DNA of 64,000 bases, from positions 62,001-126,000 of the forward strand of contig SBGP01000082.1 in the NCBI GenBank assembly GCA_006226595.1, read 5' to 3'. The position numbers and the translations under genes are program-made. Shown piece by piece: positions 14,267-59,724 of this stretch (position 1 is its first letter; each line of letters starts with the position of its first letter). The notes under the pieces are model-generated. The model was not told where the DNA came from. It saw nothing but the letters and a program-made list of their open reading frames with translations, and searched no databases. This DNA is from Deltaproteobacteria bacterium (GTDB lineage: Bacteria; Myxococcota_A; UBA796; GCA-2862545).

Positions 14267-15063
14267 GCGAGCCATCGGACATCGCGGCCCGGCTCGATGC
14301 GCGCCTGGTCTCGAGCTCCCTCCTGACTGGCGGCGTCTCGGCCCACGTCACCCACCTCGTGCTCGCACGCCCCGATGGCACGCGCCTCGACGTCGTGCTT
14401 CGCCAGCACGACGCCGGCGACATGCGGCGCGAGGCGGCGGTGCAGCGCTGGATCCGTAGCCACGGCGCATGCGCACCCGAGCCATTGCTCGTGGACGACG
14501 ACGGCACGTGGATGGTTCTCGCGTACGTACCCGGACGGCGCGCGGACGCGCGCGATGTCGACGCCATGGGCCACTACCTCGCACGACTGCACGCGTTGCC
14601 CATGGCGACGGCGCCGGCTCTCCCCTCTCGCGAGGCCCCGGATCTCCGTCCCTGGCTCCCGGCGAACCACCCGTTGCTCTCCGTGCCCCTCCCCAAACCC
14701 GAGGGACGCGGCGTGCTCCACGGCGACTTCTGGCCCGGGAACCTGCGCGTGCACGAAGACGGGATCTGTGCCCTCGACTGGGAGGACGCCGCCGTCGGCG
14801 ACCCGCTCTGCGACGTGGCGGGCGCGAGGGTCGAGCTCACCTGGGCCTTCGGCGAGGCCGCGGCGGAGCAGTTCACTCGGGCGTACGCGAGCCTCGCCGG
14901 CGCCGTCGATGCCACGCGACTCGCGCGGTGGGAGGCGTTCACCTGTGCCGCGGGTCTGGCCCACGTCGATCAGTGGGGGCTGCCCGAGGCGGACGTCCAG
15001 CGCATGCGCGAGCGCGGCACCGCCATCCTCGAGCGAGTCACCCGCACGCTCACTGGCGCTTGA
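14263..15063 (+). CDS. Phosphotransferase of the aminoglycoside/choline kinase fold
   Basis: 266 aa. Kinase-like motifs are VLHGDFWPGN (catalytic HxDxxxxN) and ALDWEDAAVGDP (metal-binding Asp). It may phosphorylate a sugar, choline-like alcohol or antibiotic; homologues are functionally diverse. A sugar nucleotidyltransferase at 16827 could pair with it in an AmgK/MurU-like salvage route, but the two are not adjacent and this is speculation. The start overlaps the GST stop (ATGA). Its 3' end overlaps the convergent small lipoprotein gene by 14 nt. Confidence 0.85.
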   Translation: MSEPSDIAARLDARLVSSSLLTGGVSAHVTHLVLARPDGTRLDVVLRQHDAGDMRREAAVQRWIRSHGACAPEPLLVDDDGTWMVLAYVPGRRADARDVDAMGHYLARLHALPMATAPALPSREAPDLRPWLPANHPLLSVPLPKPEGRGVLHGDFWPGNLRVHEDGICALDWEDAAVGDPLCDVAGARVELTWAFGEAAAEQFTRAYASLAGAVDATRLARWEAFTCAAGLAHVDQWGLPEADVQRMRERGTAILERVTRTLTGA

Positions 15064-15385
15064 GCAGGACCTCGCCGTTCTCGCCCGGCTGCTTCTTGAC
15101 CTCGAGCACCGTCCAGGTGGTGCCGTCGACTGCGATCACGCTGCCGGCGCCGACCCACACGCTGCTGTCGTCCGGCAGGGCGAGCACCGCCGCCACCCCC
15201 TTGGCTTCGGTGCCGTCGGGGAGGGTGTACTTGCCCGAGGTCACGACCGTTCCCACCGCCACGCGGGCGCCGTCCAGGTCTCCGACCGTCGTCTCTTCGA
15301 TGGATGCATCCGGCGTCACGGCCGGCGTTGCCTCAGCCACGGTCTTGCCTCCTCCACAGGCCAACGTGAGTAGCAGCCACCACAC
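15050..15385 (-). CDS. Small lipoprotein downstream of the calpain-like protease
   Basis: 111 aa from a GTG start. Signal peptide MWWLLLTLAC has lipobox LTLAC with Cys10. The mature part is two or three beta-hairpin units, with VGDLDGARVAVGTVV and WVGAGSVIAVDGTTWTVLEV resembling an SH3-like or KOW-like barrel. It follows the protease stop after 6 nt, so the two are very likely co-transcribed. Function unknown. Confidence 0.7.
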   Translation of the reverse strand: MWWLLLTLACGGGKTVAEATPAVTPDASIEETTVGDLDGARVAVGTVVTSGKYTLPDGTEAKGVAAVLALPDDSSVWVGAGSVIAVDGTTWTVLEVKKQPGENGEVLLKRQ

Positions 15386-15391
15386 TCAGCG

Positions 15392-16453
15392 TCACCCGCC
15401 GACACGAATGCTTCGGTAGAAGCGCATGAAGTCCTTGATGGGAAGCTTGTCCACGTGGTGCGAACCCCACGGGTTGGTCAGCGTCACGGTGCGACCGTCG
15501 AGATCGACCTTCTCGGGCACGTAGGCGTGGTTGCCGTACACGTTGAACTTGCGCGCGGCGTCGGCGAGCTGCTGATCGTCTTCCATGTTCAGCGAGTCGC
15601 AGGTGCACGGCTGCTTGTCGTCGAGCGCGATCGCCATGTGAAGCAGCGCGTCGTCCTCGTCCATGCCGGAGGTGGCCATGTAGCCTTCGTTCTTGCCGGT
15701 AAACAGCTCGGTGGCGCCGTGGAACTGGAAGCCCTTGCTGATGTTGCCGCCAGAGATGAGGTCGTAGCTGCCCTTGTGCTGGGCGACCGTCTTCTCGAGC
15801 AAGGCGGCCCACATCTCGGTCTTGCCCTCGGCCTGATCGCCGGTCTTCGCGTACAGCGCGGAGCTGCCGTTCATGGGCAGGCGGGCGTCGACGGTCTTGG
15901 TGACCTTGGTCGGCCGGCTGTAGTAGCTCTGGCGGATGTAGAGGCTGACGTCGAAGGTGCCGTCCTCGTTGTCCTTGATCAGGTTCTGGATGGCGTCGGG
16001 GTTCGCGCGAGCCACGGCGATCATGCCGGCCATCAGGTAGCAATCGCCGAGCGCCCCCTGCGCGACGTCGTTCGGGTCGATGGCGTGGTCGTCGTTCGCG
16101 CCCTTCACGAAGGCGGCGCCGTTCTCGACGTCCTTGTACTCCTTGCCGTCGTGCTTCGGACGCAGCGCCGGGAGCTCCTCTTCCTGCTGGACGCGGTCCC
16201 CATCCTCGGCCCAGTCGTACTTGCCGCCGTCCTCGGCGAAGTCGTACTTGCCCTTGTTCGCCGGGGCGACCTCCGTGTCGTGGAGCCCGAGCACGGTGCT
16301 CTGCTCGTCGACGCCGCCAGCCTTCGCAGCCTGCTCGAGGAGCGACACGAGCAGCTCGTTGCTCGGAGTGGCGCTCTCAGTGCCCTTCTTGTCCGCCTTT
16401 GGAGCCGGCGCGGACTTCTTGTTCTCGGGAGAGGCGCGGTGGGCCTTGGCCAT
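15392..16453 (-). CDS. Calpain-type (C2 family) cysteine protease
   Basis: 353 aa. The calpain triad is complete: Cys138 in QGALGDCYLMAG, His309 in YGNHAYVP and Asn327 in TNPWG. The N-terminal ~110 residues are Lys/Ala/Glu-rich, contain a KYD(F/W)AEDG duplication, and may act as a pro-region. No signal peptide is seen, so it is cytosolic or exported by a specialised route. ATG at 16451-16453 was chosen because AGGAG lies 6 nt upstream; an earlier in-frame start at 16489 lacks one. Bacterial calpains are uncommon and mostly uncharacterised. Confidence 0.88.
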   Translation of the reverse strand: MAKAHRASPENKKSAPAPKADKKGTESATPSNELLVSLLEQAAKAGGVDEQSTVLGLHDTEVAPANKGKYDFAEDGGKYDWAEDGDRVQQEEELPALRPKHDGKEYKDVENGAAFVKGANDDHAIDPNDVAQGALGDCYLMAGMIAVARANPDAIQNLIKDNEDGTFDVSLYIRQSYYSRPTKVTKTVDARLPMNGSSALYAKTGDQAEGKTEMWAALLEKTVAQHKGSYDLISGGNISKGFQFHGATELFTGKNEGYMATSGMDEDDALLHMAIALDDKQPCTCDSLNMEDDQQLADAARKFNVYGNHAYVPEKVDLDGRTVTLTNPWGSHHVDKLPIKDFMRFYRSIRVGG

Positions 16454-16826
16454 CTGGATCTCCTGGGGGTCCGATGAGGAAACGGACACGCGTCATTCTA
16501 CCGTGTCTCACGCGCATCCGAAAGGATCGACACGGCTTGCCGCTGACTGGCGGGATCTCCGAGACGGACCCGGCGGCGGGATCTGCGCAGCACGGTGCGA
16601 AAACAGAGCCAGGGTGAAGCGCCGCCCAGGTTTGCGTGTCGGAAGGCGCCTCACCCCAGCCACGTGCCACCTGAACACAGGCGGCGACGACTCGTCGAGT
16701 ATTTGAGCGAAATCCGCTCTCCAGCTGCGTTGTCGCAGGATCGGAACCCCTGGCCACACCCGCCGCAGAGTGGCGCGCGGTACGCTGTCCACCCTTCCCC
16801 CGATCCTCCCCTCCCCGGTCCCCGCC
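16454..16826. other. Intergenic region between divergent protease and nucleotidyltransferase genes
   Basis: No convincing ORF. On the minus strand TAGAAT (16495-16500) is a good -10 for the protease, with TTTCGG 17 nt upstream of it. On the plus strand TACGCT (16781-16786) is the -10 candidate for the nucleotidyltransferase. Nothing recognised in the ~280 nt between them. Confidence 0.5.
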
Positions 16827-59421: not shown

Positions 59422-59724
59422 CTAGAAGCTGCCCTCGACGAGGACGCAGCTGCCCGCGTTGCACTCGGCGGTGAGGGGCGCGCACCCCATCTCGGTGCAC
59501 GCAACGGCGCCGCCGCAGCTCTCGCCGTGCTCGTCGAACACCGCCTGCTCCTGGTCGGAACGCACGGCCACCGCCGCCCCGCCGTTGCACGAGTCGCAGC
59601 AGCCGAGCTCGACGACCACGCAGGTCGCGCCGTCCGAACAGTCGGTGTAGGCCGCATCGAGCGCGGTCTGCGGGACCGGCTCCCAGGTCGAGCACGCGAA
59701 GAACAGCCACAGCAGCGCCGGCAT
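59422..59724 (-). CDS. Small Cys-rich lipoprotein
   Basis: 100 aa. Lipobox LFFAC. Mature region has Cys in YTDCSDGATC, LGCCDSCNGG, SCGGAVACTEMGCAP and CNAGSC, about ten in 85 residues, typical of a disulfide-packed exported domain. ATG 59724 is preferred over the GTG two codons upstream, because GGAGG lies 5 nt before it. Minus-strand -10 TACAGT is at 59742-59747. Function unknown. Confidence 0.78.
   Translation of the reverse strand: MPALLWLFFACSTWEPVPQTALDAAYTDCSDGATCVVVELGCCDSCNGGAAVAVRSDQEQAVFDEHGESCGGAVACTEMGCAPLTAECNAGSCVLVEGSF

What the first reader, a model, noticed from the sequence alone, without database searches (positions are those of the whole stretch)
15050..16453. Calpain-like protease and small lipoprotein operon
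A complete Cys-His-Asn triad in a 353-aa bacterial calpain with a charged N-terminal region and no signal peptide is followed after 6 nt by a lipid-anchored beta protein. Such a pair could be enzyme plus inhibitor, receptor or export adaptor. Bacterial calpain systems are poorly described.
Basis: partly seen in the sequence, partly recalled or inferred. Interest (0 to 1): 0.6.

Follow-up and report, generated by a model that had tools for sequence, protein, structure and literature searches.

The report
Calpain protease with exported partner protein
A bacterial protein-cutting enzyme related to our own calpains travels through evolution with a small exported partner protein, and both occur only in bacteria that also carry phage-tail-like injection machines, so the pair is probably an injected protease plus the protein that protects its maker.

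Summary
A 353-aa calpain (Pfam C2, triad C138/H309/N327) is followed 6 nt later by a 111-aa all-beta, probable lipoprotein ('P2').

The linkage is strong and phylum-wide. In 284 Myxococcota genomes, 25 of 33 P2 matches lie beside a calpain gene, and all 31 P2-bearing genomes carry a calpain. Pairing survives reversal of gene order and paralogy, and the two proteins co-diverge.

In relatives the same calpain domain is the C-terminal module of large carriers with eCIS_core (DUF4157) or annexin repeats, both hallmarks of payloads of phage-tail-like contractile injection systems. A contractile sheath gene is present in 31/31 P2 genomes and 73/77 calpain genomes, but in 58/207 genomes without calpain. 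T6SS and a papain-family control show no such link. Other calpain clades have other constant partners, and partner type follows the calpain tree.

Best reading: a calpain protease payload with a cognate exported inhibitor or immunity protein, resembling Bacteroides C10 protease/staphostatin-like pairs and eCIS toxins. Delivery, inhibition and target are inferred. The window protein itself lacks eCIS_core, a recognisable leader and a neighbouring eCIS operon. New variant of known kinds.

The parts
15392..16453 (-). Calpain-family (Peptidase C2) cysteine protease, 353 aa
   Evidence: ORF; Pfam PF00648 E 2.3e-20; AF2 model matches calpain-1 core, E 1.7e-13
16220..16453 (-). N-terminal region, residues 1-78: basic disordered tail, helix 32-45, acidic linker; no Sec signal
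   Evidence: AF2 pLDDT and secondary structure; no match to a leader profile built from eCIS_core proteins
16040..16042 (-). Catalytic Cys138 codon (QGALGDC)
   Evidence: Invariant in alignment A4; codon checked
15527..15529 (-). Catalytic His309 codon (GNHAY)
   Evidence: Invariant in A4
15473..15475 (-). Catalytic Asn327 codon (NPWG)
   Evidence: Invariant in A4
16067..16069 (-). Asp129, aligned with Ca2+ site-1 ligand Asp96 of rat m-calpain
   Evidence: Profile alignment to PDB calpains; at least 90% conserved in A4
15815..15817 (-). Glu213, aligned with Ca2+ site-1 ligand Glu175
   Evidence: Profile alignment; at least 90% conserved
16460..16464 (-). AGGAG ribosome-binding site, 6 nt before the ATG
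   Evidence: Sequence
15050..15385 (-). P2 partner: 111-aa probable lipoprotein, all-beta core (residues 27-110)
   Evidence: ORF; AF2 pLDDT 92.5; conserved beside calpains
15356..15385 (-). Short hydrophobic signal and lipobox MWWLLLTLA-C10 of P2
   Evidence: Sequence; equivalent signal or lipobox in most relatives
15386..15391 (-). 6-nt spacer between the two genes; in relatives often a 1- or 4-nt overlap

Best explanation
The two genes are one functional unit: a calpain-type cysteine protease that serves as a payload (effector) linked to a phage-tail-like contractile injection system (eCIS), and P2, its cognate exported, usually lipid-anchored beta-domain partner, which binds and restrains it so that the producer and its kin are not damaged in the envelope. 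Shown here: the protease family and intact triad; conserved P2 linkage and co-divergence; fusion of the same domain to eCIS_core and annexin carriers in relatives; tight co-occurrence with contractile sheath genes but not T6SS; partner identity that follows calpain clades, with replacements. Inferred: proteolytic activity, injection, inhibition by P2, the target, and possible gating by Ca2+ (site-1 side chains kept), so that the enzyme is quiet in the low-Ca2+ cytoplasm and active outside or in the target.
For: Linkage: 25 of 33 P2 matches in 284 genomes lie beside a calpain, and every P2 genome has a calpain. The partner precedes the protease in L056, L059 and L062 yet stays adjacent. Co-divergence over 24 pairs: Spearman 0.58 against a permutation maximum of 0.36. 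Payload architecture: annexin repeats + C-terminal calpain (L027, L030); eCIS_core + calpain (L036, L037, L071); L029 has an eCIS_core/annexin/ADP-ribosyltransferase gene two genes upstream of calpain+P2. L071 and L037 combine eCIS_core, calpain and a P2-like neighbour. CIS co-occurrence: sheath in 31/31 P2 genomes (p 4e-12) and 73/77 calpain genomes against 58/207 others (p 4e-26), also outside the window's order (15/15, p 8e-8; 38/41, p 6e-17). T6SS VipB shows no positive link; papain-family control 34/99, none. The window genome carries sheath and tube genes on C87 and no VipB. Partner classes follow the calpain tree: 18 changes against 54.8 in shuffles, 0/200 as low; a clade with a different 96-aa partner nests inside the P2 clade. 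The eCIS_core leader motif is enriched at calpain N-termini: 26/74 above the 95th percentile, 3.7 expected.
Against: The window calpain has no eCIS_core domain, scores at control level for the leader (p 0.50), and is not near the eCIS genes found (contig C87 against C103). P2 lacks a signal peptide in several relatives (L024, L051, L058, L061, L063, L033), so periplasmic action is not universal. Sheath co-occurrence is correlation, and PF17482 also matches phage sheaths. The P2 fold gives no significant match to any known inhibitor. No direct evidence of binding or toxicity.
Confidence: 0.57

Rival explanations
1. Ordinary exported protease plus dedicated inhibitor, without injection: the calpain reaches the envelope or medium by an unknown route or by lysis, and P2 protects the producer's periplasm, as in staphopain/staphostatin or the Bacteroides C10 bfp/bfi and btp/bti pairs.
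For: P2 matches the Bacteroides inhibitors in size (111 aa; theirs 116-138), all-beta structure, lipoprotein signal, tight spacing and occasional upstream position (PMC3462683). Some calpains in the set carry their own Sec or lipoprotein signals (L076, L079, L121-L123).
Against: P2-linked calpains in the window's order have no Sec signal, and relatives are fused to eCIS_core or annexin carriers. Sheath co-occurrence is near-perfect.
Confidence: 0.22
2. CIS-delivered effector against eukaryotes (for example protist predators or prey) in which P2 is a docking, folding or assembly factor rather than an inhibitor.
For: eCIS_core and annexin carriers are typical of PVC/eCIS effectors, several of which act on eukaryotes (PMC8213781, PMC3482391).
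Against: P2 is exported in most relatives, which is wrong for a cytoplasmic chaperone. Orphan P2 genes (L050, L052-L054, L064, L069) and partner replacement fit immunity better.
Confidence: 0.1
3. Endogenous regulatory protease: the calpain does site-specific cleavage in the envelope or in development and the lipoprotein is its receptor or activator.
For: Some Sec-exported calpains lack a recognised partner (L076, L079, L087). Myxococcota have complex development (general knowledge).
Against: Patchy distribution tied to CIS, C-terminal placement on giant carriers, several paralogous pairs per genome and partner swapping are atypical of a core regulatory protease.
Confidence: 0.08
4. Chance neighbours.
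For: None beyond two relatives without the partner (L025, L031).
Against: 25 of 33 linkages and persistence through gene-order inversion.
Confidence: 0.01

Closest known systems
Bacteroides C10 cysteine proteases with staphostatin-like inhibitors (bfp/bfi, btp/bti; PMC3462683), and staphopain/staphostatin and SpeB/Spi
   Same: Papain-superfamily protease with a small, mostly beta, often lipoprotein partner a few nt downstream or sometimes upstream; partner families unrelated between protease clades
   Different: Those proteases are C10 or C47 and are Sec-exported; here the protease is C2, lacks a Sec signal, and relatives are fused to eCIS_core or annexin. P2 has no significant fold match to a solved inhibitor
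eCIS-associated toxins (EATs) and PVC-metallopeptidase polymorphic toxins (PMC8213781, PMC11297309, PMC3482391)
   Same: N-terminal eCIS_core or annexin modules with swappable C-terminal enzymatic domains; CIS-bearing genomes; neighbouring partner genes
   Different: No calpain was found in the full-text searches of these papers, and immunity genes are described as mostly missing. The window protein has no eCIS_core or leader and is not beside an eCIS operon
Cpe1/Cpi1 papain-like protease toxin and immunity protein of T6SS/CDI (PMC12136450)
   Same: Cysteine protease toxin with an adjacent, co-evolving small immunity protein
   Different: Cpe1 was structurally aligned with the peptidases ComA and LahT and is delivered by T6SS or CDI. 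Here a C2 calpain with an exported partner and no T6SS sheath gene in the genome
WXG100-calpain proteins (putative T7SS toxins; PMC4631099)
   Same: Bacterial calpain domain in a likely secreted-toxin setting
   Different: T7SS trafficking module; no P2 partner described
DUF6406 (PF19944)
   Same: Weak match over most of the P2 core (E 3.6e-4; also 4.8e-4 for the Luteimonas partner)
   Different: Both below the curated cut-off; no literature found

Membership tests
Peptidase C2 (calpain) | Pfam PF00648 match over the curated cut-off | tested here: met
   73.3 bits against 23.8
Peptidase C2 (calpain) | Cys-His-Asn triad in QG..GDC / HAY / NPWG | tested here: met
   Invariant C138, H309, N327 in 32 sequences; codons
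Peptidase C2 (calpain) | Calpain protease-core fold | tested here: met
   Foldseek E 1.7e-13 to human calpain-1 core
Peptidase C2 (calpain) | Ca2+ site-1 side chains (Asp96, Glu175); site 2 (Glu292 etc.) | tested here: inconclusive
   Site 1 aligned and conserved (D129, E213); the Glu292 equivalent is H333; Ca2+ dependence not testable here
Peptidase C2 (calpain) | Proteolytic activity | not testable with these tools
   Needs an enzyme assay
eCIS-associated toxin | CIS genes in the same genome | tested here: met
   Two sheath matches and tube genes on C87
eCIS-associated toxin | eCIS_core (DUF4157) in the protein or within two genes | tested here: not met
   None in the window protein; nearest eCIS_core match at C103:20391, outside the window. 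Met in relatives L036, L037, L071 and, two genes away, L029
eCIS-associated toxin | Recognisable N-terminal leader | tested here: not met
   Window p 0.50; enriched among calpains overall, 26/74
eCIS-associated toxin | Within about ten genes of the eCIS operon (88% of known EATs) | tested here: not met
   Different contigs, C103 and C87, in a fragmented assembly
Staphostatin-like inhibitor | Small beta protein adjacent to a papain-superfamily protease gene | tested here: met
   111 aa, all beta; 6 nt spacing
Staphostatin-like inhibitor | Staphostatin or lipocalin-like fold | tested here: not met
   No significant PDB fold or sequence match
DUF6406 | Score over the curated cut-off | tested here: not met
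   21.1 bits against 26.9
T6SS effector | T6SS sheath (VipB) in the genome | tested here: not met
   No VipB in G000; 2/31 P2 genomes
Toxin-immunity pair | Partner neutralises toxicity | not testable with these tools
   Needs co-expression or an inhibition assay

The most novel reading that the evidence does not exclude
Calpains are a general payload class of contractile injection systems in Myxococcota, each clade with its own dedicated partner or antitoxin (exported P2, a beta-helix protein, 120-aa and 96-aa proteins). The calpain core, known mainly as a eukaryotic cytoplasmic protease, would then have a bacterial weapon role, with Ca2+ site 1 gating activity by location. This would also supply candidate immunity genes that eCIS toxins have been reported to lack.
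Probability: 0.38. Interest if true: 0.82.

Novelty: new variant of a known kind. Interest (0 to 1): 0.62.

Why it matters
The role of bacterial calpains is unexplained, and for eCIS toxins the scarcity of identifiable immunity genes is stated as an open puzzle (PMC8213781). This work ties the two together with genome-scale evidence, names a specific two-gene unit, and gives directly testable predictions: P2 inhibits the calpain, and calpains are in CIS particles. It also suggests that a protease fold best known from animal cells is used by environmental bacteria as an injected payload.

Tried and rejected
PADLOC defence models: no match. T6SS as carrier: no VipB in the genome and no positive association. 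Leader shared with eCIS_core proteins: true for several relatives but not for the window protein; the 'SNELLVSLLEQA' helix only looks similar and is not claimed. P2 as staphostatin, lipocalin or any known fold: no significant hit in PDB or the viral library; repeated sub-threshold phage head-tail adaptor hits were not interpreted. DUF6406 membership: below cut-off. NCBIfam LolB1_Flavo hit for P2 (13.8 bits against 50): rejected. Generic protease-CIS association: rejected by the papain control. The truncated start called by my gene finder for P2 (15319) was rejected because relatives share the longer N-terminus.

Full report
WHAT IS THERE. On the minus strand of the window, an ORF at 16453..15392 encodes a 353-aa protein with an AGGAG site 6 nt before its ATG. 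Pfam assigns it to calpains (Peptidase_C2, E 2.3e-20). C138, H309 and N327 are invariant across 32 relatives. The AlphaFold2 model is confident from about residue 88 to the end and matches human calpain-1 at E 1.7e-13. Residues 1-31 are basic and disordered, 32-45 form a helix, and there is no Sec signal. Six nucleotides after its stop, a GTG starts a 111-aa ORF (15385..15050), which an in-frame stop prevents from starting earlier. Its first ten residues are MWWLLLTLAC, a short uncharged hydrophobic stretch ending in a plausible lipobox Cys; the rest is an all-beta domain (AF2 pLDDT 92.5). I call it P2. Its fold has no significant PDB or viral match, its sequence no PDB match, and its DUF6406 score is below cut-off.

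LINKAGE. In the same order, P2 lies beside the calpain in L023, L024, L026, L027, L009, L029, L030 and L041. Searching 284 genomes of the phylum (Myxococcota, judged from named relatives) with a P2 profile gave 33 matches in 31 genomes. A calpain-domain profile on the same genomes found calpains in 77, including all 31. Twenty-five of the 33 P2 matches are directly beside a calpain. In L056, L059 and L062 the order is reversed, with P2 first, and adjacency is kept. Among 24 linked pairs the two distance matrices correlate (Spearman 0.58; maximum of 2000 permutations 0.36), with P2 cores about 33% and calpains about 40% identical on average. P2-like partners also sit beside calpains in Luteimonas (E 1.8e-5), Planctomycetota and, weakly, Actinomycetota. 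Most P2 relatives carry a Sec or lipoprotein signal; L024, L051, L058, L061, L063 and L033 do not.

CARRIERS. In several relatives the same calpain domain is the C-terminal module of a much larger protein. L027 and L030 (about 1150 aa) begin with annexin repeats; L036 and L037 (about 2400 aa) and L071 (487 aa) have eCIS_core, the former DUF4157. L029 has an eCIS_core/annexin/ADP-ribosyltransferase protein two genes upstream of its calpain-P2 pair. Published work describes exactly this layout, eCIS_core or annexin at the N-terminus and a swappable enzymatic domain at the C-terminus, for payloads of PVC-type or extracellular contractile injection systems (PMC3482391, PMC8213781). I found no calpain in the searched text of those papers or of PMC11297309.

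CO-OCCURRENCE. Of the 284 genomes, 131 have a contractile sheath (PF17482) and 42 the T6SS sheath VipB. All 31 P2 genomes have the contractile sheath (Fisher p 4e-12), as do 73 of 77 calpain genomes against 58 of 207 without calpain (p 4e-26). Outside the window's order the figures are 15/15 (p 8e-8) and 38/41 against 46/194 (p 6e-17). T6SS shows no positive association, nor does papain-family Peptidase_C1, used as a patchy protease control (34/99 with sheath). These tests do not correct for shared ancestry beyond the order split, and PF17482 also matches phage sheaths. The window's genome has sheath and tube genes, in two sets, on contig C87 and no VipB.

PARTNER CLASSES. On a maximum-likelihood tree of 101 calpain domains, 33 have P2, 31 a beta-helix-like neighbour, 10 a 120-aa protein and 4 a 96-aa protein. 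The labels need 18 changes against 54.8 in shuffles, none of 200 as low. The 96-aa clade, whose calpains sit on giant carriers (eCIS_core detected in L036), nests within the P2 clade with strong support, so the partner was replaced there. Orphan P2 genes exist (L050, L052, L053, L054, L064, L069). The window genome's second calpain (L048) is followed by an unrelated 332-aa lipoprotein. Clade-specific partners, replacement and orphans are what one expects of toxin-immunity or protease-inhibitor pairs.

MECHANISM. I think the calpain is a CIS-linked payload and P2 the exported partner that keeps it in check. Staphostatin-like inhibitors of Bacteroides C10 proteases are the nearest functional precedent: small, beta, often lipoproteins, a few nucleotides downstream or sometimes upstream (PMC3462683). 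The side chains that align with Ca2+ site 1 of rat m-calpain (Asp96, Glu175) are conserved (D129, E213), while the Glu292 position of site 2 is His333 (site definition from PMC4631099). This suggests, without showing it, that the enzyme could be quiet in the low-Ca2+ cytoplasm.

LIMITS. The window protein has no eCIS_core, no neighbouring eCIS operon, and no leader by a profile trained on eCIS_core proteins (p 0.50), although that leader is enriched among calpains as a whole (26 of 74 above the 95th percentile of 607 controls). I therefore do not file it as a member of the eCIS-associated toxins; I say it most likely works like one. Genes in relatives were called by my own simple script, and signal peptides were judged by eye. 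Activity, inhibition, delivery and target need experiments.

Noticed in passing
L072-L074, L077, L078, L080-L086, L088, L089, L094, L095, L097-L104, L106-L109: A right-handed beta-helix-like protein (mostly about 190-310 aa) is the constant neighbour of two other calpain clades, downstream in one and mostly upstream in the other; it may be a second type of calpain partner.
   Followed up: partly
L048:7366-10066 (G000:C47): The window genome has a second, divergent calpain (560 aa) followed 19 nt later by an unrelated 332-aa lipoprotein that looks beta-helix-like.
   Followed up: partly
L029:2194-8385: A 2063-aa protein with eCIS_core, annexin and a C-terminal ADP-ribosyltransferase domain lies two genes upstream of a calpain-P2 pair.
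   Followed up: partly
L034:7149-7752, L036:10170-10469, L114:4795-5088: A 96-99 aa protein without Pfam match, duplicated in L034, replaces P2 behind calpains on about 2400-aa carriers.
   Followed up: partly
L137, L138, L139, L142, L150, L156, L158, L160: Calpains of about 580 aa in Archangium and relatives are followed within about 20 nt by a conserved protein of about 120 aa beginning MAKPPEPIEDV or similar, without Pfam match.
   Followed up: partly
L050:5369-7721 and L052:3896-6327: Orphan P2 genes in two genomes of one genus start a conserved operon with a roughly 500-aa protein and a 157-182 aa lipoprotein-like protein; function unknown.
   Followed up: no
L044:15844-19761, L045:399-2883 (G000:C87): Contractile injection genes (two sheaths, two tubes) run to the contig end, with an eCIS_core-like gene about 5 kb away (L044:11763-12341).
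   Followed up: partly
window 59422-59724 (-): Another gene with a very short, uncharged lipoprotein-type signal (MPALLWLFFAC), like that of P2.
   Followed up: no
L075, L076, L079: Calpains of about 560-630 aa; those of L076 and L079 begin with a Sec lipoprotein-type signal, and none has a recognised partner.
   Followed up: no
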